Assembly: GCA_018831195.1 (NCBI GenBank)
Contig: JAHJDP010000019.1
Location: forward strand, 1 to 64,000
Source: Candidatus Eisenbacteria bacterium
GTDB taxonomy: Bacteria; Eisenbacteria; RBG-16-71-46; CAIMUX01; JAHJDP01
Direction of reading: 5' to 3'
Length of the DNA: 64,000 bases
Made by a program: the position numbers and the translations under genes. Under the pieces are notes generated by a model. It saw only the letters and a program-made list of their open reading frames with translations, was not told the DNA's origin and ran no database searches. Positions 18,929-34,593 of this stretch are shown in pieces; the first letter of the stretch is position 1, and each line of letters opens with the position of its first letter.

Positions 18929-21900
18929 TCAGCGAATTAAGACGATCCGTTTGGTCTGTTTCTCCCCCATGAAAGGAAGCTGGTAGAAATAAATCCCTGA
19001 TGCGACAGGGGCGCCATTGTCGTTGCGGCCGTCCCATTTCACATGATGGATACCGGCGGAACGATCCTCGTTAACAAGGGTTCGGACCAAACGCCCCGCA
19101 GGATCGAAAACGTTCAGATGCACCGGCACCCCTCCGGATCCGCCGGGGATCGTATAGGTGATCGTTGTCGACTGGCGGAATGGGTTTGGAGCCGCCTGTC
19201 CGAGATGGACGGACCAGGGAAGCGGTTCGCTATCGACTGCGCTGGGATCGCAGGTATCGGTGCCCCATGCCCCGATAAGATCGCACTCCACATTGGGAGG
19301 GGAGAAGGGGGCGCAGGGTGAATCGATTGCAATGGCGTAATCCCCGATCTGAGGATTGCAGAACAACGGATCCTCGCAGATATTTCCGTCAACGCCCTCT
19401 TGCCCCGCGATGCTTCCGACCCAATCACCGCCGCTATTCCCGTAGATGTCGCAGCAGCTCAAGATGACGCTCTGCGAGAGGCAATGAACAGCTTCCATTT
19501 GGTCGTTATAAGCGAACAAGGAGTTTTGCACATTGAAGGTGTTTGAATTGGTGCAAAGCGCGGATCCGTGAACCTCGGCCGCATTGTCCGCGAAAGTGCA
19601 GTTCGAAATCACCGGCAGGGAGTTGCTGACATAGATGGCGCCGCCGTTATCCGCACTGTTATCATAGAATGTACAATTGATGAACGATGCGTCGGATTGC
19701 CCCGAGCAATAAATCGCTCCTCCGCTGATCCCGGTATGGTTGTTGCTGAAAACGCAATTGATGAAGGTTGGATTCGAGGCGTCCCGGCACCATGCCGCGC
19801 CGCCGCTGTCATACCGGCGGTATCCGTTTCTAACCTTGATGCCCTCGACAACCGCGTCGGGCCCCTCGGCCGAACGGAAATAGAAACCCCGTTGTGTCGA
19901 GGATTCGGAGCCTTGGCAGTCAATGACACAGGCATAGGGATTCCCGCTTTGCGAGCGGAGCGTAATCGCCCGGCCGCCAAAATCCAGGTTCCGGTTGCCG
20001 TCACCAACGTAGATTCCATTGGTCAATTCGATAATGTAGCCGTCCAGGGAGGCATCGATCGCCTCCTGAATTGTGGGGAAATCTCCAGAGCCGTCGGCTG
20101 AGACGATGACCACATCGCAACCCAAGGGGAGCGCCCCGATCTGCCCGCAGGTGGGATTATAGTCGGCCCGGCAAGGGGACTCCGATTGCAGATGGAAGTT
20201 CTCGTTCTCTTGATCGCAGAAGAGCGGGTCTTCCGATATATTACCGTCGACTCCATATTGATCGGCGATGCACCCGACCCAGTCGCCACCGGTGTTGTTG
20301 AAGATATCGCAGCAGACGAGCGGATCGGAAATCACGCCGCCTTCACATTGAACCGCGCCGCCGCCGGTCCCCGAGACAATAATGCCGTTTTCAAACTCGG
20401 CGGCTGAGTCATCCGAGATCCATAAGGCGCCGCCGGCGAGAGCCCCGTTCGCAAAGAAAGTACAATGTGTAATACTCGGCTGCGCACCATCTTGAACGAT
20501 GATGGCTCCGCCGTTGCCGGCGGCTAGATTCGACGAGAAGATCGATTCAGTGATGAGAGGCGAGGAGCCGGAGCATAAGATCCCTCCGCCGTTGTTCAAC
20601 GATTCGCTGTCGCGGATCAGGCAATTCCTAATAGTGGGGGACGAGTTGTTCGCGCACACGATCGCCGCGCCACTGCTATCGGCGCCCATGTAACCATTGC
20701 GGATGGTGATCCCTTCCAGCACCGAGGAGGCTCCTTCCCCGGAGACAAAATTGAATCCCCGATGTTCCTCGGGATTCCCTTCGCAGTCGATGATGCAGTA
20801 TTCCGGATCTCCGCCGGCCGATCGAACCGTGATGGGATGCCCATTGAAATTGAGATCACGGTTGCCCTCACCGGTAAAGACCCCGTCGCCGAGTTCAATG
20901 ATATCGGCATCCAAAACATCATCAATCGCCGCTTGGATGGTGGGGTAGTCACCCGATCCATCCGGCAAAACCGTAAAGACATAGCCGATTTTCGGCATGA
21001 TCCGCCGGTAGAGTTTTTCCTGGCCTATGTCATAGGTGTGGTAAATGGCATCGATGCTGAACCATGCATTATACGAACCGCCCCATCCATAGTTCATGTG
21101 ATACTGATTGAAGCCCTGCGTGTCACGCCATCCGTCACATACGATGGCGTGTCCTTCAGTGGCGCTGTAGCGGAATGAATAGGCCATCGGCCGTCCCGCA
21201 TCGATTTCATCCTGAATGATATGAAACCAGCTGTCAGGATCATGCGAACTCCGGCTCACTTCATTGATCGTATTGTCATAGCGGAAATAATTCGGGAGCA
21301 CATCGATAATATCGCTGGTATAGGCCCCGGAACCACAGGCGCCGTACACCATCTCAAAGGCGATGCCGACCTCATAATTGAGTTCGGCCAGGGCGTCCTC
21401 TTGCTCCGGCGTGCACCCGCCGGTGCAGCTATTGGGCATATTGTCCCAATCGTATGGATCGGAGAATTCGGCATAGAGCCAATCGCCGGGCGAGCTGCCT
21501 CCGCATGAGGTGTCGCCGCCCCAGTAGTAGGACCAGCCACTGACACCGCGCGGCGGCCAATTCCAATATCTCATGATCTGGGCGGTGGCCGTGGCGACAC
21601 ATCCGACCACACAGCGACCCCCGTCACCCATTGGGGCGTAATTGTTATAGGGATCTCCCTGGTGCCAAGCCGTCGTGAGCAGCGGCCCGACCTCGCCTCG
21701 CGAGAAGAGCGGATCCTCGCCGAGAGAGCGGGCAAAATCAGCCGGATGGGCCAGGTAGCGGTCCCATGTCTCGCGGTGGGCGCGATCAAAAAGAACCTCG
21801 CCGGTCGCGGGCTGGGCGGCCGCGAGGCTGCCGTATCTTTCCATGAAGAGTTGAGCGCGATGCTTAAGGATTTCCCGCAGAAGTTGGGGGAATCCCTGAG

Positions 21901-22261
21901 CTTGTTGGACATCGAGTCCGCAGGTCTCGGAGGAGACCTTAACCGGGGACATCTCCATCAGGACGGGAACGACAATATGACCCTGCGGGAAGATTGAATA
22001 GCAGCGTGCCAGAAGGGTTTCACCCACACGGATCTCCTGGACACTCTCGATCCGCGGATGGATCTCTCCGGCCCAATCGCCGTGCTGATGGACCATGGTG
22101 GCCAGCCAGTTCGTGGCGACCGTTTCCATCTCATCCGCCGTCGCTGTCTCAGCCCGGGCTTCCAAGGGAAGCAGACTCAACACCCCGAGGAGGATGAGGA
22201 TAAGAAGACCGGGGATGGAATTTTGAAGATACCAATGCTTGTTCTGATTGCGACACAACAT
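18929..22261 (-). CDS. Secreted C10 (streptopain-like) protease with duplicated beta-helix and FlgD-like C-terminus
   Basis: A protein of 1110 residues. A signal (to about 37) and pro-region (about 40-190) precede a C10 cysteine peptidase domain (about 190-425) with catalytic Cys 221 in GCVATATAQIM, His 371 in EGHAIVCDGW, and NYGWGG at 391-395. Two right-handed beta-helix units follow (about 428-710 and 715-1000). Both start DGSGDxPTIQxAID and share IIEL, RxGF and NGY landmarks, so they arose by duplication. The end (about 1030-1110) is a FlgD-like module (WDGRNDNGAPVASGIYFYQL). GGAGG lies 11 nt before the ATG. It is probably secreted, matured by removal of the pro-region, and surface-attached; the last two points are inference. 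Confidence 0.9.
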   Translation of the reverse strand: MLCRNQNKHWYLQNSIPGLLILILLGVLSLLPLEARAETATADEMETVATNWLATMVHQHGDWAGEIHPRIESVQEIRVGETLLARCYSIFPQGHIVVPVLMEMSPVKVSSETCGLDVQQAQGFPQLLREILKHRAQLFMERYGSLAAAQPATGEVLFDRAHRETWDRYLAHPADFARSLGEDPLFSRGEVGPLLTTAWHQGDPYNNYAPMGDGGRCVVGCVATATAQIMRYWNWPPRGVSGWSYYWGGDTSCGGSSPGDWLYAEFSDPYDWDNMPNSCTGGCTPEQEDALAELNYEVGIAFEMVYGACGSGAYTSDIIDVLPNYFRYDNTINEVSRSSHDPDSWFHIIQDEIDAGRPMAYSFRYSATEGHAIVCDGWRDTQGFNQYHMNYGWGGSYNAWFSIDAIYHTYDIGQEKLYRRIMPKIGYVFTVLPDGSGDYPTIQAAIDDVLDADIIELGDGVFTGEGNRDLNFNGHPITVRSAGGDPEYCIIDCEGNPEEHRGFNFVSGEGASSVLEGITIRNGYMGADSSGAAIVCANNSSPTIRNCLIRDSESLNNGGGILCSGSSPLITESIFSSNLAAGNGGAIIVQDGAQPSITHCTFFANGALAGGALWISDDSAAEFENGIIVSGTGGGAVQCEGGVISDPLVCCDIFNNTGGDWVGCIADQYGVDGNISEDPLFCDQENENFHLQSESPCRADYNPTCGQIGALPLGCDVVIVSADGSGDFPTIQEAIDASLDGYIIELTNGIYVGDGNRNLDFGGRAITLRSQSGNPYACVIDCQGSESSTQRGFYFRSAEGPDAVVEGIKVRNGYRRYDSGGAAWCRDASNPTFINCVFSNNHTGISGGAIYCSGQSDASFINCTFYDNSADNGGAIYVSNSLPVISNCTFADNAAEVHGSALCTNSNTFNVQNSLFAYNDQMEAVHCLSQSVILSCCDIYGNSGGDWVGSIAGQEGVDGNICEDPLFCNPQIGDYAIAIDSPCAPFSPPNVECDLIGAWGTDTCDPSAVDSEPLPWSVHLGQAAPNPFRQSTTITYTIPGGSGGVPVHLNVFDPAGRLVRTLVNEDRSAGIHHVKWDGRNDNGAPVASGIYFYQLPFMGEKQTKRIVLIR

Positions 22262-24800: not shown

Positions 24801-25292
24801 ATGCCTTCCGAAAACAGGCGTACAGCTGTCGAAAGCGCTCTCCGCCTTTATGATATCAAAACCACTGATGACTTTCCTCCCTGGCTGACTTTCGAGTCAC
24901 TTGTGCAGTTTCTTCACGAGAACATGAGACCATACGAAGATAAACCCCGCGATATCGCAAAGGCCCTGGAATACGCCCTTTCGGCGGCGGAGGGGAAAGG
25001 CGGCTTCATTCTCGTTGCTGCGAGGGATTCAGAGATGGTGGGCGCTATTGTGATTTTGAAGACGGGCATGTCGGGCTATATCCCGGAAAATCTGCTTGTT
25101 TTTGTTGGTGTCCAACCTTCAGAGCGGGGTCATGGAATCGGTGGAAGGCTCGTAAACGAAGCGCTTGATCGTTGCGAGGGAAGTATGAAGCTTCATGTCG
25201 AGTATGACAATCCGGCGAAACGGCTTTATGAACGAATCGGCTTCACAACCAAATATGCGGAGATGCGCTGCTCCAGAGAGGAGCGAATATGA
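24801..25292 (+). CDS. GNAT-family N-acetyltransferase
   Basis: A protein of 163 residues with GNAT core features: GGFILVAARDSEMVGAIVIL (strands 2-4), LLVFVGVQPSERGHGIGGRL (motif A with the acetyl-CoA loop QxxRGxGxG/A variant ERGHGIGG), and DNPAKRLYERIGFTT (motif B, the RimI-like NxxAxxLYxxxGF). The ATG at 24801 has GGAGG 4 nt upstream; the frame opens earlier at 24759 without one. Its TGA overlaps the next ATG (ATGA), so it is coupled to a racemase gene. The substrate is probably an amino group on an amino acid or small amine, inferred from the neighbours. Confidence 0.88.
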   Translation: MPSENRRTAVESALRLYDIKTTDDFPPWLTFESLVQFLHENMRPYEDKPRDIAKALEYALSAAEGKGGFILVAARDSEMVGAIVILKTGMSGYIPENLLVFVGVQPSERGHGIGGRLVNEALDRCEGSMKLHVEYDNPAKRLYERIGFTTKYAEMRCSREERI

Positions 25293-26461
25293 CCCGTGTG
25301 GTAATCAATCTTAGGGCCCTGCGACATAACCTCAACACGGTAGACAAGTGGATGCAGGGCAGCGGCGCTCAGTGGACCCTGGTGACCAAAGTCCTCTGCG
25401 GACATGAGGCCACGTTGCGAGCCCTGCATAATACTGGTGTACAATCAATGGGCGAGTCACGCCTCGAAAACCTGCGCGCTATTCGCTCTATTGCGCCCGA
25501 GGTGGAGACATGGTATCTACGCGTACCGGCCCTGGCGTCGATTTCCGATGTGATCGATTTGGCGACGGTGACACTGAACACGGAAGATGAAACGATTCAT
25601 GCCCTCAATGAGGAGGCGAAGCGGCGAGGCAGGATTCATCGAATCATTATCATGATCGAGCTTGGTGACCTAAGAGAGGGAATTCTACCGGGGTCGCTTA
25701 TAAATTTCTACAACCATATTTTTCAACTGGACCATATAGATGTTCTTGGCATAGGAGCCAATCTGGGGTGCCTGGCCGGCGCCGTACCGAATGTCGACCA
25801 GTATATGCAGCTTATCATGTACCGCGAATTATTAGAGTTGAAGTTCGGACAGAAACTGCCCTTCATTTCAGCGGGGACAAGCGCGACATTGCCGCTTGTG
25901 CTCGACGGCCAGCTGCCGGAGGCCGTCAATCATTTCCGGATTGGCGAGGCGGTTTTCCTCGGTACAGACCTGGTTAATGGAGGATTGCTGCCCGAGCTGC
26001 GTAACGATGTCTTTACGCTGGAAGCGGAAATAACCGAAATCAAGAGGAAAAGTCTATTTTCGGATGTCGAAACAGCCGAAATCGGACCCTTTAAGAAAGA
26101 ATATGCCGAGGAGTTCAGGCCGGGGCAGCGCGGATATCGCGCCTTGGTTAACGTGGGCGAGCTGGACACAGAAGTCAGCGGGCTCATACCTGAGAATCCG
26201 AATTTTCACATTGCCGGCGCCAGCAGTGATGTTTCGGTTGTCAACGTCGGTGACAGCCCCGGAGGGCTTTCGGTGGGTGATGTTATGTGCTTCCGAATGA
26301 CCTACTCGGCCCTGGTGCGCATTATGGCCAATAAATATGTTGATGTTGATGTCGAGCCGTCGCTCAAGGAGTACATCGCTCTGCAGGACGATGAGCCGGA
26401 GATACCGATACTCCCGGTTCTCGATTGCTCTGAAACTATCAATGAACCGGGCCCCAAATGA
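25289..26461 (+). CDS. Ornithine/alanine-racemase-family PLP enzyme (Orr-like)
   Basis: A fold-type III PLP enzyme of 390 residues. PLP-binding Lys 34 lies in TLVTKVLCGH. Family landmarks are ESRLENLRAIR, TLNTEDETIHALNEEAKRRG, IELGDLREGI, GIGANLGCLAGAVP, FRIGEAVFLG and GASSDVSVVNVGD, which I associate with the ornithine racemase branch rather than classic Alr. It would interconvert L- and D-forms of a basic or other amino acid. Translation is coupled to the GNAT gene. The 76 bp to the next gene contain no terminator. Confidence 0.88.
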   Translation: MTRVVINLRALRHNLNTVDKWMQGSGAQWTLVTKVLCGHEATLRALHNTGVQSMGESRLENLRAIRSIAPEVETWYLRVPALASISDVIDLATVTLNTEDETIHALNEEAKRRGRIHRIIIMIELGDLREGILPGSLINFYNHIFQLDHIDVLGIGANLGCLAGAVPNVDQYMQLIMYRELLELKFGQKLPFISAGTSATLPLVLDGQLPEAVNHFRIGEAVFLGTDLVNGGLLPELRNDVFTLEAEITEIKRKSLFSDVETAEIGPFKKEYAEEFRPGQRGYRALVNVGELDTEVSGLIPENPNFHIAGASSDVSVVNVGDSPGGLSVGDVMCFRMTYSALVRIMANKYVDVDVEPSLKEYIALQDDEPEIPILPVLDCSETINEPGPK

Positions 26462-26537
26462 GAGGAGACTTCATCGAGTGAATCCGTCAATGAGTAAAAT
26501 CCTCATTAAGCGAAGCTGATGATGAGTGAATGCCATC

Positions 26538-27671
26538 ATGAGTGATAACGACCTGATTAAGCTGCGCCAAGAGCTCCACCGGCGCGCCGAAACCGCACAC
26601 GAAGAACACAGGACGGCGTCATTCATAACAGAAACTCTTTTGCGGACAAAGCCTGCAATCTTGCACGGGAAAGTGGGCGGCCGCGGCATTGCGGCCGAGT
26701 ACCACAGTGCCTCTCGCGGTCCCACAGTGCTTCTGCGCTGTGAACTGGATGCACTTCCCATTCCTGAACAGGCAAGTATTCCCTATTCATCGCAAAACCC
26801 GGGAGTCTCACATAAATGCGGGCACGACGGCCATATGGCCGCTATGGTGGGGCTGGCCAATCGGCTCGGAGCGGCGTCCCCGGCCTGCGGCCGGGTCATC
26901 CTTCTTTTCCAACCGGCGGAAGAGACAGGCGAAGGAGCGCATTTAGTATTGGATGATCCAGTTTTAAAAAAACTGCAGCCGGATTGGGTTTTCGCCTTTC
27001 ACAATCTGCCTGGATATGATCTGGGAAAAGTGATTATCCGCCCGGGGACTTTTGCCTATGGTTCGCGGGGTCTTGCCATAACATTGACCGGAGCCACAGC
27101 GCATGCCGCCGAGCCGGAGGCCGGGCGGAGTCCGGCTCTGGCTATGGCACAGATTATCGAGGGGCTCAGCGCCCTTTCCGGCGCACAGACAGGTCCCGGC
27201 GAGCCGGCACTTGCAACGGTTATACATGCCCGGCTCGGTGTAGAGGCTTTCGGCACCACTCCTGGTGAAGGGGTCGTGATGGTGACTCTACGCGGAGCTT
27301 TAGAAGAGGATATTGACCGGCTTGAAAGGACATGCCGAGACCTTGCACTAAGAATCGCGAAGGCGGAAGGATTGGATATCGATATTGAGAAGCGCGAGCC
27401 CTTCCCGGCTACGGTCAATGATTCGGAAGCGGTTCAGATTGTGCGGAATGCCGCCTTGGCCGCCGGGCTGGAGGTCATTGAGTTGCCGCATCCCTTCAGG
27501 TGGTCCGAGGACTTTGGGCATTTCACGAAATTACACCGCGGTGCTCTGTTTGGTTTGGGTGCGGGGCCGGATCATCCGTCCCTGCATCACCCGGACTATG
27601 ACTTTCCGGATAAGATTTTAGGCCCTGCCGTCGCAGTGCTGGGTGGGATTGTCGATCGAATTTGCGGCTAA
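26538..27671 (+). CDS. M20-family amidohydrolase (N-acyl-amino-acid deacylase type)
   Basis: A metal-dependent deacylase of 377 residues, M20D-like. It has HRRAETAHEEHRT at the N-terminus, a CGHDGHMAAM metal site, PAEETGEGA with the catalytic Glu pair, ATAHAAEPEAGRSP in the lid domain and HHPDYDFPD with the last His. Relatives remove acyl groups from amino acids (hippurate, N-acetyl-amino acids) or auxin conjugates. Lying between two racemase genes and after a GNAT, it is a good candidate to deacylate an N-acylated D- or L-amino acid. The ATG at 26538 is chosen by homology; a GTG at 26526 is also possible, and neither has a strong ribosome site. Confidence 0.88.
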   Translation: MSDNDLIKLRQELHRRAETAHEEHRTASFITETLLRTKPAILHGKVGGRGIAAEYHSASRGPTVLLRCELDALPIPEQASIPYSSQNPGVSHKCGHDGHMAAMVGLANRLGAASPACGRVILLFQPAEETGEGAHLVLDDPVLKKLQPDWVFAFHNLPGYDLGKVIIRPGTFAYGSRGLAITLTGATAHAAEPEAGRSPALAMAQIIEGLSALSGAQTGPGEPALATVIHARLGVEAFGTTPGEGVVMVTLRGALEEDIDRLERTCRDLALRIAKAEGLDIDIEKREPFPATVNDSEAVQIVRNAALAAGLEVIELPHPFRWSEDFGHFTKLHRGALFGLGAGPDHPSLHHPDYDFPDKILGPAVAVLGGIVDRICG

Positions 27672-27705
27672 AGGCTTTGGATTTAAGACAGGAAGATGAG
27701 GTACG

Positions 27706-28872
27706 ATGCATTACTCCTCATATGTGGAAATCAGCCGATCAAGTTACAACCGCAATGTAAAATTTCTGCGGAAACTTTTGGGCCCCGGCGTGCGCTTCAG
27801 CTCCGTCATCAAGGGAAATGCGTATGGCCATGATATTGCCACCTTCCTGCCTTTGGCGGAGACATGCGGCGTCGATCACTTCTCGGTTTTCAGCGCGGAG
27901 GAAGCACTGGTGGCCGATCAATGCCGTGGGGAGAAGACCGAACTGCTCATCCTTGGATACATTGACAATGCCGAGCTGGAATGGGCGATTGACCGTCGGA
28001 TAGCTTTCTATGTGCCGGATTTCAACCGCTTGAAGGCTGCCGAAGCAGCGGCGCGCAAAGTCAACAAACCCGCGCGTATTCACCTGGAGCTGGAAACCGG
28101 GATGAACCGCACCGGGATGGAGGGCGAAGAACTCGAGCGCGCCGCCGGCTTCTGCTTGTCGAATCCTGGATGTCTTCTTGTTGAGGGAATCTGCACACAT
28201 TTGGCAGGCGCCGAGAGTGTTGCCAATTATCTGCGAATCCAGACGCAATTCGAAGTCTTTAATGAACTCTGCCGGGATCTTGCGGCGCGCGGCCTGAAGG
28301 GGGTCATACGGCATGTCGCCTGCTCGGCCGCCGCTCTGAATTACCCGGAAACCCGGCTCGATTTGGCGCGCATCGGTATCGCGCAGTACGGCTACTGGCC
28401 CAATCAGGAAACCCACATGAAGTATAGGATACTAGCCGAAGGGGAGGGGCGGATTTCGAAGCGCGGTCCTTTATGGGGTATCCTTCGCTGGTGTACCCGC
28501 ATCATGAGCCTCAAAGATGTCAAGCGCGGCGACTTCGTTGGTTACGGAAATGCCTACCAGGCCATGCGCGATCTCCGGATCGCGGCGATTCCGGTCGGCT
28601 ATTACCATGGATTTGCCCGCAATCTCAGCAATCTGGGGAATGTGCTGGTCCGCGGCCGCATTGCGCCGGTCATCGGCTATGTCAACATGAACATGATGAT
28701 GATCGATGTTACCGATTGTCCCGGCGTCGAGAAGGACGACGAGGTGGTCCTTATCGGCCGGCAAAACCGGCATCATATCACCGTGCGCTCCTTCAGCGAT
28801 CTCTCTAATTACGTTAACTATGAAATCCTTGTGAGAATTCCAGCCACGATTCCACGCGTTGTAGTGGATTAA
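27706..28872 (+). CDS. Alanine racemase family protein
   Basis: A PLP enzyme of 388 residues. Lys 36 lies in SVIKGNAYGHD, HLELETGMNRTGM is the second motif, CTHLAGAES the third, and catalytic Tyr 280 is in DFVGYGNAYQA. The RGRIAPVIGYVNMNMMMIDV stretch corresponds to the RICMDQ region of Alr. Overall it fits the alanine racemase fold with a divergent substrate pocket, so the substrate could be an amino acid other than alanine. It follows the deacylase gene by 34 bp and ends the plus-strand operon; the converging symporter gene begins 83 bp further on. Confidence 0.88.
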   Translation: MHYSSYVEISRSSYNRNVKFLRKLLGPGVRFSSVIKGNAYGHDIATFLPLAETCGVDHFSVFSAEEALVADQCRGEKTELLILGYIDNAELEWAIDRRIAFYVPDFNRLKAAEAAARKVNKPARIHLELETGMNRTGMEGEELERAAGFCLSNPGCLLVEGICTHLAGAESVANYLRIQTQFEVFNELCRDLAARGLKGVIRHVACSAAALNYPETRLDLARIGIAQYGYWPNQETHMKYRILAEGEGRISKRGPLWGILRWCTRIMSLKDVKRGDFVGYGNAYQAMRDLRIAAIPVGYYHGFARNLSNLGNVLVRGRIAPVIGYVNMNMMMIDVTDCPGVEKDDEVVLIGRQNRHHITVRSFSDLSNYVNYEILVRIPATIPRVVVD

Positions 28873-28955
28873 GCGCCGATTCGATTGGCGGATGGGCGCT
28901 GTGGCGGAACGGTCCTGGACACGCCTCCTTCACGCTATGCGGCCATGGGGCGGAG

Positions 28956-30812
28956 TCAGATATCTTCCCGGCGAATCCGCGAAACGGCCAATAGAATCAA
29001 GTAGGCGATACAGGAAACGGCGACGCCGAAAACGGCGGGATCGAAATTCTCCATGAAATTCATGGCATTGTCTGAAATAGGAAACCATCCGAATTTATTT
29101 TGAAGAAAAAGCACCGCGCGATATAGCAGGGTCAAGCCGGTCGCCGCAAGCATGGTGATCATGATATTGCGCGTCAGATGGCGGGAGCGCTTCTTATAAA
29201 CCACTCCGACGACGACCGGCAGAATGATCGCCGGCGCCCAGACATGGTAGGTGAACAGCAGCAGTCCAATGATATCCGACCAGAGAATCGCGACCAGAAT
29301 CGCGGTCAGACCTAAAACCGCCGTGCAGATCCTCGCCAGCCGCAGCATCCGCCCATCACCCTGGTCCTTCCAGCCGAGTTGATGTTCGAAGAGATCTTTT
29401 ACAAAAATCGCCGTGGCTGAATTAAGCGCCGAATCGGCCGAGGACATGACAGCCATCAGAAGGGCGCCGATCATCAATCCGCCAATGACCGGGTTGTGCA
29501 GTTGTTCGACAACCATGGGGAGCGCCTGCTGCGGGTCGATATCGGGGAAATGAATCCGCGCATACAGGGCGATGAAAAACAGGATCACAGGAAAAGTTAT
29601 GGCCAGAAAAAACCCTACCCCAGCGATGCCCAAACGCGTTTCCTTGATATTCCGCCCCACGCAATAGCGGGTCGCATATCCCGGCGCGAAGGTTTCACCG
29701 AGAAGGAATGCAAGGAAGGTCGTGAGTAGAAAAAGCCAGCCCTTGCCCCCTTCAACTTTGAAAAAAACGCCGGGAATCATCCGGTTGCGCGTGATCTCGG
29801 TGGGAAAAGCATCCTGTAGCAGGGAGAGGTTGCGCCGGCGCAAGGTGCGCCCGGACGCTCCCTCGCTGAGCAACTCGCGGGTCTGCGGTGTCAGTCGGAC
29901 ACCGGCGAAGGCCTCGGGTGAATAGAGCAACGGGTCATCGAGCAGGCCGTTGAGGCCGGCGACAAGTTCCCCGGCCGGGGCCGCCTCGCCGGTTGCGGCA
30001 CTGTCCGCTGTCTCTGCTGCGCGGACTTCATCCGCTGTTGAACTGGATGCTGCCAGCTTATCCTGCAAATAAACAGCCAGGGAATCGCCGTCATCCTGAA
30101 GTTTCGCGGACAACGATACGGGGTTCACGATGTCGACGGCGCTGAAGCGCGACGGAACGAATTTGCCGGTCTCCGCATTATACGAGTCGGCGATGTCGGG
30201 AATGCAGAACCCGAGCGTAATTACAAATCCCAAAAAGAGCACGATGAATTGATAAACATCGGTGTGAATGACGGCCAGCAGCCCGCCCGCCGTGCTGTAG
30301 GTTACGACCATGATCCCGGAAATGAAGATCGCCCAGCGCAGGGCATAGGCCATGTCGGCGACGCCCGGCATGATCGCTGCAAGCACCGAACCGAAAGCGG
30401 CCATTTGGGCGGCGACGATGAAGACCGAGAAGAGCAGCGACAGGATTAGAACGAGGAAGCGCGGCCCCTCGCCGTATCGATGTCCGAAATAACCGGCGAC
30501 GGTGTAGAGCTCCGCCCGTCTGAATTGCGGCGCGACGACGAGTCCGGAGAAGATGAAGTGCAGGTACCCGCCCATGGAGACGAGAAGCATCAGGATGCCC
30601 CATTCGTAGGTCTTGCCGATGGCGCCGATCGAGTAGCCTCCGCCGATGACGGTGGCGCCCATCGTGGCGAACAGCAGGAACCACGGCACGTTGCGCCCGG
30701 CGACCAGGAAATCGTCGGTCGTGCCGACCTTGCGGACTTTGAGGACGCCTTTGATGAAGACGAACAGCATGTAAGAAATGACGATGCCCCAAAGGATCAG
30801 ACGGTCTGTCAT
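28956..30812 (-). CDS. Sodium:solute symporter family (SSS) transporter with large insertion
   Basis: A membrane transporter of 618 residues, normally about 480-550. Helices with family patterns are seen: YMLFVFIKGVLKVRK, TTDDFLVAGRNVPWFLLFAT, TVIGGGYSIGAIGKTYEWG, TYSTAGGLLAVIHTDVYQ and LLMAVMSSADSALNSATAIF (the sodium-site helix). Between about residues 215 and 350 lies a hydrophilic, Ala/Asp/Glu-rich insertion unusual for the family. It converges on the racemase operon, suggesting uptake of the amino acid or amine that those enzymes handle. Its promoter may be the duplicated one at 31081-31109. Confidence 0.9.
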   Translation of the reverse strand: MTDRLILWGIVISYMLFVFIKGVLKVRKVGTTDDFLVAGRNVPWFLLFATMGATVIGGGYSIGAIGKTYEWGILMLLVSMGGYLHFIFSGLVVAPQFRRAELYTVAGYFGHRYGEGPRFLVLILSLLFSVFIVAAQMAAFGSVLAAIMPGVADMAYALRWAIFISGIMVVTYSTAGGLLAVIHTDVYQFIVLFLGFVITLGFCIPDIADSYNAETGKFVPSRFSAVDIVNPVSLSAKLQDDGDSLAVYLQDKLAASSSTADEVRAAETADSAATGEAAPAGELVAGLNGLLDDPLLYSPEAFAGVRLTPQTRELLSEGASGRTLRRRNLSLLQDAFPTEITRNRMIPGVFFKVEGGKGWLFLLTTFLAFLLGETFAPGYATRYCVGRNIKETRLGIAGVGFFLAITFPVILFFIALYARIHFPDIDPQQALPMVVEQLHNPVIGGLMIGALLMAVMSSADSALNSATAIFVKDLFEHQLGWKDQGDGRMLRLARICTAVLGLTAILVAILWSDIIGLLLFTYHVWAPAIILPVVVGVVYKKRSRHLTRNIMITMLAATGLTLLYRAVLFLQNKFGWFPISDNAMNFMENFDPAVFGVAVSCIAYLILLAVSRIRREDI

Positions 30813-31246: not shown

Positions 31247-34200
31247 TCAACGCAGCAAGCTCAATTTCCGCGCCTGGCTGAAGCCGTCACTCTCGAGCTT
31301 GTAAAAGTAGATACCCGAGGCAACCTTCCGGTTCTGGTTATCCCGCCCGTCCCAGATGACCGTATGACGTCCCGCGGCGATCGGCCCATCCACAAGATGC
31401 CGCACGATCCGCCCCTGCTCATCATAGATTCGGAGGGTGACAACAATATTGGATCGCGGGACATCGTAGATGATCATCGTGCGTGAATTGAGCGGGTTCG
31501 GCCGGCAGGGGTGCAGGGCGAATCGATTGATGGAGAGTTCACCGGCCGCGCCGCTGGCGTCACTCGCCAGGGCCGGACCGCTCTCATTGCCGGCGTTATC
31601 GACGGCCGTCAATTTGTAAAAGAGGGTGTGGCCGGGACTCTCGTCGGCCCAGTGCGTGGCGATCGTTTGATGCGCCAGATTTTCCGGCGAGGGCTCGAAA
31701 TCGGCATCGGGGCCTCTGTAAATGTTGAAGTACTGGAAATCGTCATCGGGACAGGGATTCCAGGAGAGGATGCTGGCACCGGGGGAGAAAGTTATCTGAA
31801 ATCCCTCGGGGACGGAAGGGGCGATATTGTCGACGGAGTATCCCGTCATGGGATCGCTGATAAAAATACCCTCGTCCATATGGGCGATCACCCGGAACTG
31901 GGTCAGGCAAGGGTCGGCCGCGGTTGAATCGCAGAAGGTGGGGACAAGATAGATGTAGCCTTCCTGCCCGTATGCCCCGCCGGAGAGAAGAGTTACCCAT
32001 TGGCTATTGTAAAAGGCCTCCACCGCATAGATCTCGGATCGTGGTGAGTTGGTATCGTGGCCGCTGCGATTGAAGGAAACGAGAACCTGACCCCCCTGGT
32101 CATCCGGGACATCGTCGACAGCGGTGATGATCGCTTCGGCCGGCAACATCCTGATCCCAACGCTTGCAGTGTCGCTATTGGCCGGCCCCGCGGCGATCAA
32201 TGTCACGGTGAAATCGCCCACGGCAGTATAGGTGTGGACAGGATTCGCGACACTCGAGGAATCGCCGTCGCCGAAGTCCCAGTGATAGGTGTCGATCGTT
32301 CCGCTCGAGGTGTTGGTGAAGGCGATCGGAGCGGGAACAACACCGAACGTGTCGGAAGGCGTGAAGCCCGCGACGACCGTCTCCGGATCGACGATAATTA
32401 TATAGTCGATCTTGCACTCCTCATCGGTGCCGCCGGCGCCGCCGACCTCCAGACAGACGGTGTAGGTGTCGGGCATCGCGTAATGATGCAGCGGGCTCCA
32501 CTCGTCCGAAGATTCTTCATCGCCGAAGGTCCAAAGGAGAGTCGAGATAGCACCCAGCGATTGATTATTGAACTGCACATCGCCGTGGCCGATGAGGGGA
32601 TCGGCGTTGAAGTGGGCGACGGGCGGCGCATTCCCAGGCAACACGGCGATGTAATCGATCTTGACCGCTGAATCGGTGCCGCCACCCGGTCCCATAACGA
32701 GAAGAGAAACGGTAAACTGGGTCGGCTCGGTCACGATGTAATTATGGGCCGGATTGGCCCGGCTGCTCGATGTGCCGTCCCCGAAATCCCAGAGCCAGCT
32801 TATGATCGGCCCGCCGGTGTTGCTGGTGGTGAAGGCCACCGCCAGAGGTGAAGCGCCCGTTGTCGGGTCACCGGTGAAATCTATTACGGGCGGATCGGGG
32901 TTTGATTGAAGGAAAGGGAAGGCGCCGATATCGGCGATCGTGCCGTCGGCGTCGTAAGTGGCCGGATCGGGAAGACCGGCGTCGATACAGGGCGATCCCT
33001 CGAGAAGATGGTATTCATTCTCGGGATCGAAAAGCGGATCCATGGAGATGTTGTAATAGGTGTCGCAGGGGTCGTTGTTATAATTCGTGCAGCAGATATC
33101 CCCGATGTTTGAAGGCAGCCCGTCACCAGTGTAGTTGGTGCCGTTGTTCCAGACATTATTGTACATGATGGAATCTGGAGAACAGGAATATGCGTTGATC
33201 CCATGGTTGTTTTCTGATATGACATTGTCGGCGATAAGGGGTGTGGCTGATTCTATTAGTATCCCTGTGGAATTCGACCTTACTATATTGCCGACGATCC
33301 TGGGTGAGGATGCTGAGCATATAATTCCAGTAGCACTTGAATACATGAGTGATTCAATAATGTTATTCATGATGAGCGGCGCCGAAAGGGCTCCAGTGCA
33401 ATAAATTCCCATTTGGATAAAACTGCCGATATAATTTCCGGTGATAACCGCGGAGCTGCCATGGCAGGATATCCCGTAGACGACGTTTTCAATCGTATTG
33501 CCGGTGATAAGTGAAGGGGAATCGCTGAGTTCAATTGCTGTGTGGACTCGACCAAGGGTATTATTCGAGATTACAGATGAGGAATAAAAACAATATATAC
33601 CTACCTCACATTCGTAGATATGGTTCCCAATAATCTGAGCGGTTGCCCTTCCGCAGAATATGCCATTATTTTCGGAATAACGTATTGTACAATTTTCAAT
33701 GAGTATAGGCGTGCTCCCCGTAGATTCCAATTTCAGCGCCCAGCCGTCGCCGGCTCCTCCGCCGGACCCCGCATTTTCAATCACACAGTACTCCAGAGAT
33801 CCCGAACAGGTCGTCGAATCGGTGAAGACAATCCCTTTCCAATCACCCGGGGCAGGCCCGAGTTGGCCTGAAACAAACCGAATACTGTCCGTCTCCGTTC
33901 CCGCCGCGATGAGGGCGCCGTTCACGGTCATCTGGTAATTATCCATAAAGGAGATCAATGTGCCCGGGTGAATAACAAGAGAGGAATCCGGTGGAACCCT
34001 GATATCACCGATGACCTTGAACCAATGATCCGGCGTCCACTCGCCGAAAACGTCGCCGGATACCTCGATAATCGTTCCCGGCTGCAGCGTGACATCCGCA
34101 AGGGTCGTGTTGGCGGCAATGTAAACCGGCTCGCTGGTGTCGTGCGGCAGGTACCCATCATGGGTATAGTGAATAACGTACAACCCCTCCGATAATCCCA

Positions 34201-34411
34201 AGCTGATGTATCCGGTGTCCGCCGTGAAGGCGCTGTCGGTCACCGCCGAAGGCGACACGGCCTCGAAGAGCACTCTCGTGCCGCTGTGATCCGATGCTTC
34301 ATCTTCAAGAAAGCAATAACCATCCACCGTGACCATCCGGTCTTCAGCGAGACAGATAGAAGCGGATAAGATGCAGGACAGTGTGATCGCAAAGAGGATG
34401 ATGCGCCGCAT
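31247..34411 (-). CDS. Secreted beta-helix/PKD protein with FlgD-like C-terminus
   Basis: A protein of 1054 residues. A signal peptide (MRRIILFAITLSCILSASICLA) is followed by a CarboxypepD_reg-like sandwich (about 28-120) and a NosD-like right-handed beta-helix (about 120-500, repeats such as NGIFCGRATAQIIGNHIYEC). Three PKD domains follow (WDFGDGTSSSRANPAHNY, LWTFGDEESSDEWSP and WDFGDGDSSSVANPVHTY), then an Fn3-like unit (EGFQITFSPGASILSWNP), and the C-terminal module WDGRDNQNRKVASGIYFYKL. It is probably an extracellular carbohydrate-binding or adhesive protein. The ATG at 34411 has GGAGG 8 nt upstream; the frame opens at 34501 inside the repeat. It is flanked by 138-bp direct repeats. Confidence 0.9.
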   Translation of the reverse strand: MRRIILFAITLSCILSASICLAEDRMVTVDGYCFLEDEASDHSGTRVLFEAVSPSAVTDSAFTADTGYISLGLSEGLYVIHYTHDGYLPHDTSEPVYIAANTTLADVTLQPGTIIEVSGDVFGEWTPDHWFKVIGDIRVPPDSSLVIHPGTLISFMDNYQMTVNGALIAAGTETDSIRFVSGQLGPAPGDWKGIVFTDSTTCSGSLEYCVIENAGSGGGAGDGWALKLESTGSTPILIENCTIRYSENNGIFCGRATAQIIGNHIYECEVGIYCFYSSSVISNNTLGRVHTAIELSDSPSLITGNTIENVVYGISCHGSSAVITGNYIGSFIQMGIYCTGALSAPLIMNNIIESLMYSSATGIICSASSPRIVGNIVRSNSTGILIESATPLIADNVISENNHGINAYSCSPDSIMYNNVWNNGTNYTGDGLPSNIGDICCTNYNNDPCDTYYNISMDPLFDPENEYHLLEGSPCIDAGLPDPATYDADGTIADIGAFPFLQSNPDPPVIDFTGDPTTGASPLAVAFTTSNTGGPIISWLWDFGDGTSSSRANPAHNYIVTEPTQFTVSLLVMGPGGGTDSAVKIDYIAVLPGNAPPVAHFNADPLIGHGDVQFNNQSLGAISTLLWTFGDEESSDEWSPLHHYAMPDTYTVCLEVGGAGGTDEECKIDYIIIVDPETVVAGFTPSDTFGVVPAPIAFTNTSSGTIDTYHWDFGDGDSSSVANPVHTYTAVGDFTVTLIAAGPANSDTASVGIRMLPAEAIITAVDDVPDDQGGQVLVSFNRSGHDTNSPRSEIYAVEAFYNSQWVTLLSGGAYGQEGYIYLVPTFCDSTAADPCLTQFRVIAHMDEGIFISDPMTGYSVDNIAPSVPEGFQITFSPGASILSWNPCPDDDFQYFNIYRGPDADFEPSPENLAHQTIATHWADESPGHTLFYKLTAVDNAGNESGPALASDASGAAGELSINRFALHPCRPNPLNSRTMIIYDVPRSNIVVTLRIYDEQGRIVRHLVDGPIAAGRHTVIWDGRDNQNRKVASGIYFYKLESDGFSQARKLSLLR

Positions 34412-34455
34412 GGAAGAACCCTCCCCAAGTCGATGTGAAACGGCATGTATCGTTG

Positions 34456-34593
34456 AAATCCGCCGGGACTTTCGCAGGGAAGCTAACACATTGGGGGACA
34501 AAAAACAAGGAGTCCTTTCTCATCCATGCCCACAGACAAGTGGCATCGCCGGGGTGGCGGGATTACCCTGATGGGGTTTAGCAGATGGAACGC
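34456..34593. repeat. 138-bp direct repeat, copy 2
   Basis: Gapless partner of 31057-31194. This copy carries the promoter region of the PKD/beta-helix gene and ends 151 bp before the MgtE-like gene. Confidence 0.9.
34480..34508 (-). promoter_or_regulatory. Predicted promoter of the PKD/beta-helix gene
   Basis: Minus strand: -35 TTGTTT (34503-34508), 17-bp spacer, extended -10 TGT-TAGCTT (34480-34485). The leader to the ATG at 34411 would be about 60 nt. Confidence 0.55.

What the first reader, a model, noticed from the sequence alone, without database searches (positions are those of the whole stretch)
24801..30812. GNAT, two different PLP racemases, an M20 deacylase and a symporter
An Orr-like racemase and an Alr-like racemase flank an N-acyl-amino-acid deacylase, with the first racemase translationally coupled to a GNAT acetyltransferase and an SSS transporter facing them. 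No described pathway I know uses this set. Possibilities: uptake and racemisation of an amino acid with acetyl protection, supply of an uncommon D-amino acid for cell wall or antibiotic, or D-amino-acid salvage.
Basis: partly seen in the sequence, partly recalled or inferred. Interest (0 to 1): 0.65.

Follow-up and report, generated by a model that had tools for sequence, protein, structure and literature searches.

The report
Undescribed racemase-acetyltransferase-deacylase-symporter gene cluster
Five neighbouring genes for importing, mirror-flipping and acetylating or deacetylating an amino acid turn out to be kept together in bacteria of at least four phyla (their core pair in at least seven), which marks a real but still undescribed amino-acid pathway.

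Summary
GNAT (24801-25292), an Orr-like racemase (25289-26461, 4-bp overlap), an M20D deacylase (26538-27671) and an Alr-like racemase (27706-28872) form one operon, with an SSS symporter (28956-30812) convergent to it. The GNAT-Orr pair is a single clade found in at least seven phyla: 54 of 54 collected pairs are on one strand, 47 of them less than 20 bp apart or overlapping. An SSS lies beside about 30 of the 54, and M20 plus Alr beside 17. The complete five-gene set recurs in three phyla, and four of the five genes in a fourth. The cluster Alr is a separate clade from the housekeeping Alr. In one large phylum it occurs in 27 of 40 genomes with GNAT-Orr and 0 of 40 without. Three lineages tie the cluster to ornithine metabolism (argJ, argBDCJ, rocD). 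A second acetyltransferase family, DUF1611 (DgcN-like), overlaps other Orr homologues in the same way. I infer that racemisation is coupled to N-acetylation of an amino acid, ornithine being the best candidate, with M20-Alr doing the reverse. Substrate and direction are not shown. No description found in the papers held.

The parts
24801..25292 (+). GNAT N-acetyltransferase, 163 aa, first gene of the operon
   Evidence: Pfam Acetyltransf_7/1/10 above cut-off; RBS GGAGG before ATG 24801 and 4-bp overlap with the next gene; 47-61% identical orthologues in front of Orr in the same order
25289..26461 (+). Orr-like fold-type-III PLP racemase, 390 aa
   Evidence: PF01168; NF040742 Orr 273.5 bits, below its 480 cut-off; PLP Lys34 invariant; AlphaFold model pLDDT 85, best PDB matches VanT serine racemase, Alr and BsrV; one clade with all GNAT-linked homologues
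26538..27671 (+). M20D amidohydrolase (N-acyl-amino-acid deacylase), 377 aa (alternative GTG start 26526)
   Evidence: TIGR01891 211.5 bits over cut-off 153.75; DoeB2 199.5 bits below its 550 cut-off; metal-ligand motifs conserved with cluster orthologues
27706..28872 (+). Cluster-type Alr-like PLP racemase, 388 aa
   Evidence: PF01168 and PF00842; TIGR00492 251 bits over 168; separate clade from the genome's housekeeping Alr at G000:C4
28956..30812 (-). SSS/SSF sodium:solute symporter, 618 aa, convergent to the operon
   Evidence: PF00474 123 bits; orthologues (48-84% identical) stand directly beside GNAT-Orr in other phyla (L064, L024/L133, L067, L137, L140, L148)

Best explanation
The five genes are one pathway for taking up, racemising and N-acetylating or deacetylating an amino acid, most likely a diamino acid with ornithine the best candidate. 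Shown: the genes, the operon, the conservation and the co-occurrence. Inferred: the SSS symporter imports the amino acid with Na+. The Orr-like enzyme interconverts its L and D forms by PLP chemistry. The translationally coupled GNAT acetylates one enantiomer (or the side-chain amine) with acetyl-CoA and so pulls the otherwise freely reversible racemisation one way. The M20 deacylase removes the acyl group again, and the second racemase, a clade distinct from housekeeping Alr, converts the released amino acid. Module GNAT-Orr (racemise, then acetylate) and module M20-Alr (deacetylate, then racemise) are chemical opposites, so together they could make and recover an N-acetyl-D-amino acid.
For: GNAT-Orr: 54 of 54 collected pairs on one strand, 47 with gaps from -20 to 17 bp; every full-length Orr homologue above about 300 bits against the window clade has this GNAT in front, those below do not; GNAT-linked Orr form one clade, 100/100 support. 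The core spans at least seven phyla. SSS beside about 30 of 54 loci, M20 plus Alr in 17, against no SSS, GNAT or Orr in some 30 unlinked Alr loci used as control. Cluster-type Alr in 27 of 40 GNAT-Orr genomes and 0 of 40 without, Fisher p = 1.6e-11. Every genome checked with a cluster-linked Alr has a second Alr. Ornithine: SSS-GNAT-Orr-argB-argD-argC-argJ on one strand in L132; argJ directly upstream of GNAT-Orr in L019, the window's own order; rocD and lysine 6-aminotransferase beside the cluster in L116, L117, L134. A second N-acetyltransferase family (DUF1611; DgcN model 151 bits, cut-off 480) overlaps an Orr homologue in L021 and in a Vibrio plasmid. An HDAC-family gene joins the cluster in L072.
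Against: No substrate, direction or product is shown. The window's Orr-like enzyme fails the curated Orr model (273.5 against 480 bits) and has clade-specific positions (W29, Y76, F140, H215; E124 where most others have D), so its substrate may differ from ornithine. Only three lineages carry ornithine or arginine neighbours; 20 of 54 loci have none of SSS, M20 or Alr in reach, so GNAT-Orr can act without them. The window itself has no arg or rocD gene near the cluster. The M23 peptidase-like gene in eight loci fits a peptide or peptidoglycan role at least as well. The 27/40 test does not correct for relatedness of genomes.
Confidence: 0.45

Rival explanations
1. Salvage and detoxification of foreign D-amino acids or peptidoglycan pieces: SSS imports D-amino acids or small N-acyl compounds, M20 (and M23 where present) free them, both racemases turn D into L for catabolism, and GNAT acetylates surplus or toxic D-amino acid.
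For: Cytosolic M23 peptidase-like gene in eight loci; beta-hydroxyaspartate dehydratase-like gene next to an M23-M20-Alr module in L180; rocD and lysine aminotransferase (catabolic) in L116, L117, L134; two racemases of different specificity would suit mixed substrates.
Against: Biosynthetic arg genes, not catabolic ones, adjoin the pair in L132 and L019; a constant 1:1 coupling of GNAT to one racemase is more than detoxification needs; no D-amino-acid oxidase or dehydrogenase was recognised in the clusters.
Confidence: 0.27
2. Synthesis and recovery of an acetylated amino-acid solute (compatible solute or storage compound), for instance an acetylated D-diamino acid made by Orr and GNAT, re-imported by SSS and broken down by M20 and Alr.
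For: N-alpha-acetyl-lysine is a documented solute elsewhere (PMC4685198, abstract); SSS family includes solute re-uptake carriers; HDAC-type deacetylase in L072 would suit a side-chain acetyl group; the two modules are chemical opposites.
Confidence: 0.13
3. Supply of an unusual D-amino acid for the envelope or for a specialised metabolite.
For: Dedicated Alr clade in addition to the housekeeping one; related modules pair this Alr type with an ATP-grasp ligase and an unknown 660-aa protein (L019, L166, L171, L177, L204).
Against: No NRPS, Mur-ligase or vanHAX-type gene was recognised near any of the loci; phyletic spread over many phyla is wide for a specialised product.
Confidence: 0.1
4. The genes are only loosely linked, and in the window itself the symporter is a bystander.
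For: SSS is on the opposite strand in the window; 20 of 54 GNAT-Orr loci have no SSS, M20 or Alr nearby.
Against: Orthologues of this very SSS stand next to GNAT-Orr in at least two other phyla; adjacency and co-occurrence are far above the control loci.
Confidence: 0.05

Closest known systems
Ornithine racemase Orr (NCBIfam NF040742) with D-ornithine 4,5-aminomutase (OraS/OraE)
   Same: Same protein family and fold; PLP lysine and the R-E-G, N..C and S-D motifs shared with OraE-linked Orr
   Different: Window clade scores 273.5 bits against a 480 cut-off (OraE-linked L077 scores 399); it forms a separate clade and is coupled to a GNAT, not to OraSE
DgcN (DUF1611) D-amino-acid N-acetyltransferase pathway, described as an irreversible racemisation route for acidic D-amino acids (PMC12363236)
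   Same: Logic of coupling N-acetylation to a change of configuration; DUF1611 genes also overlap Orr-type racemases (L021, Vibrio plasmid NZ_CP013250)
   Different: Here the acetyltransferase is a GNAT and the racemase a PLP enzyme, which needs a free alpha-amine, so acetylation at that amine must follow racemisation; no DUF1611 gene was found in the cluster
Alanine racemase Alr (TIGR00492)
   Same: Passes the curated cut-off; both catalytic residues present
   Different: Separate clade with its own genomic context; C311 and D313 (Geobacillus numbering) both replaced by Asn; a housekeeping Alr is encoded elsewhere
DoeB2, N2-acetyl-2,4-diaminobutanoate deacetylase, and other M20D amidohydrolases
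   Same: Second-best NCBIfam match after the M20D subfamily model (199.5 bits); N-acetyl diamino-acid deacetylation is the proposed chemistry
   Different: Well below DoeB2's cut-off of 550; no ectoine genes nearby

Membership tests
Ornithine racemase Orr (NF040742) | Score over the curated cut-off of 480 bits | tested here: not met
   273.5 bits
Ornithine racemase Orr (NF040742) | Invariant PLP lysine and family motifs | tested here: met
   K34, R58, R129, E130, N158, C161, S313, D314, Y339 shared with all 10 non-GNAT homologues
Ornithine racemase Orr (NF040742) | Gene context with OraS/OraE aminomutase | tested here: not met
   Absent from the window cluster; OraE (by sequence reading) and a MutL-family gene (Pfam) beside Orr in L077
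Ornithine racemase Orr (NF040742) | Racemises ornithine | not testable with these tools
   Needs enzyme assay
Alanine racemase (TIGR00492) | Score over cut-off 168 bits with N and C domains | tested here: met
   251 bits; PF01168 and PF00842
Alanine racemase (TIGR00492) | Catalytic Lys39 and Tyr265 (Geobacillus numbering, from memory) | tested here: met
   K36 and Y280, invariant in A4
Alanine racemase (TIGR00492) | Housekeeping Alr of the genome | tested here: not met
   A better-scoring Alr lies at G000:C4 and groups with other housekeeping Alr
M20D amidohydrolase (TIGR01891) | Score over cut-off 153.75 and metal-ligand motifs | tested here: met
   211.5 bits; CGHDGH, AEE, HN, LHHP conserved
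DoeB2 (NF038260) | Score over cut-off 550 | tested here: not met
   199.5 bits
GNAT acetyltransferase | Pfam GNAT domain over cut-off and acetyl-CoA motif RxxGxG | tested here: met
   PF13508 47 bits over 27; RGHGIG in the sequence
SSS/SSF sodium:solute symporter | PF00474 over cut-off | tested here: met
   123 bits over 22.8; the stricter TIGR00813 (118 against 184) is not met, probably because a 120-residue insertion splits the match
DgcN-DgcA D-glutamate pathway | DUF1611 acetyltransferase gene | tested here: not met
   None of the five proteins matches DUF1611; found with Orr only in L021 and a Vibrio plasmid

The most novel reading that the evidence does not exclude
A phylum-spanning, undescribed metabolic cycle in which a PLP racemase and a translationally coupled acetyltransferase make an N-acetyl-D-amino acid (perhaps of ornithine), and a dedicated deacylase plus a second, non-housekeeping Alr-type racemase recover it, with its own Na+ symporter. 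N-acetyl-D-amino acids would then be a regular bacterial metabolite.
Probability: 0.3. Interest if true: 0.8.

Novelty: new variant of a known kind. Interest (0 to 1): 0.6.

Why it matters
The cluster is common (60 of 395 sampled genomes of one large phylum carry the core pair) yet, as far as the papers held show, undescribed, and its genes are annotated only as generic racemases, acetyltransferases, hydrolases and symporters. A dedicated second Alr clade means that some genes called alanine racemase in these phyla probably do not serve cell-wall D-alanine. Working out the substrate would show whether bacteria make and recover acetylated D-amino acids on purpose, and would reveal a second, chemically different way (beside DgcN) of coupling racemisation to acetylation. 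The question can be put directly with four small soluble enzymes.

Tried and rejected
Taking the Orr-like gene as a plain ornithine racemase: rejected as a filing because it is far below the curated cut-off and lies in its own clade. Taking the cluster Alr as the genome's only alanine racemase: rejected. Taking the symporter as a bystander: rejected, its orthologues adjoin GNAT-Orr in other phyla. Reading substrate from solved structures: nothing useful; no PDB chain matched the Orr clade profile at E 1e-5, and the fold search finds the whole Alr/VanT/BsrV group about equally. Public genome-contig scan with a single sequence found one relative only. Text searches for the pathway: nothing. The 660-aa protein of the linked ATP-grasp module has no Pfam match and no significant PDB fold match. 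A first M20 alignment used a wrong frame for L017; later comparisons used the right one.
Full report
WHAT IS THERE. The window carries a four-gene operon on the + strand and a convergent symporter gene. GNAT 24801-25292 overlaps the Orr-like racemase 25289-26461 by 4 bp; the M20D deacylase 26538-27671 and the Alr-like racemase 27706-28872 follow after 64-76 bp and 34 bp; the SSS gene 28956-30812 runs towards them on the - strand. Every family call passes Pfam's curated cut-off. In NCBIfam the M20 protein passes TIGR01891 and the Alr protein passes TIGR00492, but the Orr-like protein scores 273.5 bits against Orr's cut-off of 480. Catalytic residues are intact in both racemases, the deacylase and the GNAT.

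In the same order, G003 (L016) and G006 (L017) keep GNAT-Orr and M20-Alr side by side, with the two pairs now convergent. G002 (L019) keeps GNAT-Orr-SSS, then an ATP-grasp gene, a 660-aa gene, an Alr and the start of an M20 at the contig end. A profile search of 385 genomes found orthologues in other phyla. All full-length hits above about 300 bits, and two truncated ones, have the GNAT immediately in front; the weaker hits do not.

BREADTH. Phylum searches show that G079, G333, G226, G349 and G240 belong to five further phyla (3-10 held genomes each) besides the window's phylum and the large phylum of G379. So the core pair is in at least seven phyla. In G379's phylum 60 of 395 sampled genomes have it. 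Named examples: a Candidatus Coatesbacteria MAG (L024, Orr-methyltransferase-SSS; the contig starts inside Orr) and a Persicobacter plasmid (L195, GNAT-Orr).

STATISTICS. Among 54 loci with GNAT and Orr all pairs are on one strand. The gap is between -20 and 17 bp in 47 of them; three pairs have other genes between. An SSS is found in 31 (one of them weak and distant), M20 in 18, Alr in 17, a cytosolic M23 peptidase-like gene in 8. Seventeen loci hold GNAT, Orr, M20 and Alr: four in the window's order, L065 in G333's phylum, L072 in G079's phylum and eleven in G379's phylum. All but L016, L017 and L065 of these also hold an SSS. Typical orders are SSS-GNAT-Orr-M23-M20-Alr (L116, L117, L119, L120, L121, L134) and GNAT-Orr-SSS-M20-Alr (L130, L136, L143, L147). 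As a control, the roughly 30 loci around unlinked Alr genes hold no SSS, GNAT or Orr.

TREES AND CO-OCCURRENCE. The GNAT-linked Orr proteins form one clade with 100/100 support; the one unlinked row inside it is a contig cut before the GNAT. The cluster Alr proteins form a clade with SH-aLRT 100 that excludes the housekeeping Alr; all genomes checked with a cluster-linked Alr have a further Alr. In 80 genomes of G379's phylum, cluster-type Alr (395 bits or more, next best 252) occurs in 27 of 40 genomes with GNAT-Orr and 0 of 40 without (Fisher p = 1.6e-11). In about half of those 27 the Alr is not near GNAT-Orr, often with M20 at its side (L199, L201, L202, L207, L209). The association is therefore not just linkage. 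The test does not correct for relatedness; both sets include members of families f264, f268, f272 and f280.

CLUES TO THE SUBSTRATE. (a) In L132 (G349's phylum) the order on one strand is SSS-GNAT-Orr-argB-argD-argC-argJ, with 24 bp between Orr and argB. (b) In L019 the gene directly upstream of GNAT-Orr is argJ, ornithine acetyltransferase (230 bits over the half that is present). (c) In L116, L117 and L134 the cluster is next to rocD (684 bits, cut-off 378) and lysine 6-aminotransferase. (d) In L072 an HDAC-family deacetylase gene joins it. These are three independent lineages with ornithine links. A rough estimate from gene numbers (about ten arg genes in 3,500) makes two immediate adjacencies among some 25 lineages unlikely by chance, of the order of 1 in 100; this is inference, not a tool result. 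(e) A different acetyltransferase family, DUF1611, whose best NCBIfam model is the N-acetyltransferase DgcN (151 bits, cut-off 480), overlaps an Orr homologue in L021 and in a Vibrio parahaemolyticus plasmid. So acetyltransferase-Orr coupling arose with two unrelated acetyltransferase families, on the assumption that these DUF1611 proteins acetylate.

HOW IT PROBABLY WORKS. A PLP racemase needs a free alpha-amine, so if the GNAT acts on that amine it must act after the racemase and trap the product; acetylation of a side-chain amine is the alternative. M20 followed by Alr is the same chemistry in reverse. The simplest joint reading is import by SSS, racemisation by Orr, acetylation by GNAT, deacylation by M20 and a second racemisation by the Alr-like enzyme. 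The operon, conservation and co-occurrence are shown; every catalytic step, the substrate and the direction are inferred.

WHAT SPEAKS AGAINST OR IS OPEN. The Orr-like clade has its own conserved residues (W29, Y76, F140, H215, E124 where most others have D), so its substrate may not be ornithine. Twenty of 54 loci show only GNAT-Orr. The M23 gene in eight loci, and a beta-hydroxyaspartate dehydratase-like neighbour in L180, fit salvage of peptides or D-amino acids. The window has no arginine or ornithine gene near by.

NOVELTY. All families are known; the set and the coupling are not described in the papers held. The nearest described logic is the DgcN route for acidic D-amino acids (PMC12363236). 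I rate it a new variant of a known kind, with interest 0.6 because it is widespread and readily testable.

Noticed in passing
L019:1561-4858, L166, L171, L177, L204: A second conserved module, ATP-grasp ligase - 660-aa protein - Alr of the same special clade, in at least three phyla. The 660-aa protein has no Pfam match, no PDB fold match, and strictly conserved NPTCQ, HAVS and NPN motifs that look like a Cys-His enzyme.
   Followed up: partly
L021:6582-8892; Vibrio parahaemolyticus plasmid NZ_CP013250.1 (L196:3799-6113): DUF1611 (DgcN-like) gene overlapping an Orr-family racemase gene: a second acetyltransferase-racemase pairing.
   Followed up: partly
L116:6585-7175, L117, L119, L120, L121, L123, L134, L143, L180: A stand-alone M23 peptidase-like protein of about 200 aa without obvious signal peptide sits in the cluster; its best NCBIfam match is the middle part of the large multidomain family PRK06148.
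   Followed up: partly
window 29781-30140 (SSS gene): The window's symporter has an insertion of about 120 residues that its close relatives L064 and L067 lack.
   Followed up: no
window 18929-22261 and 31247-34501: Two large secreted-type proteins frame the region: C10 peptidase with beta-helix repeats, and PKD/NosD repeats; both end in FlgD-like Ig domains with weak type IX secretion signal matches.
   Followed up: no
L077:3872-9723: Classical D-ornithine aminomutase context: OraE - MutL-family - Orr - an Alr-family gene, a useful contrast to the GNAT-linked clade.
   Followed up: no
L197 (Salmonella plasmid NZ_CP148876.1): An Orr-family racemase between two amino-acid permeases, with an alanine racemase and argT/hisJ nearby: a further racemase-transporter arrangement annotated in a named record.
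   Followed up: no
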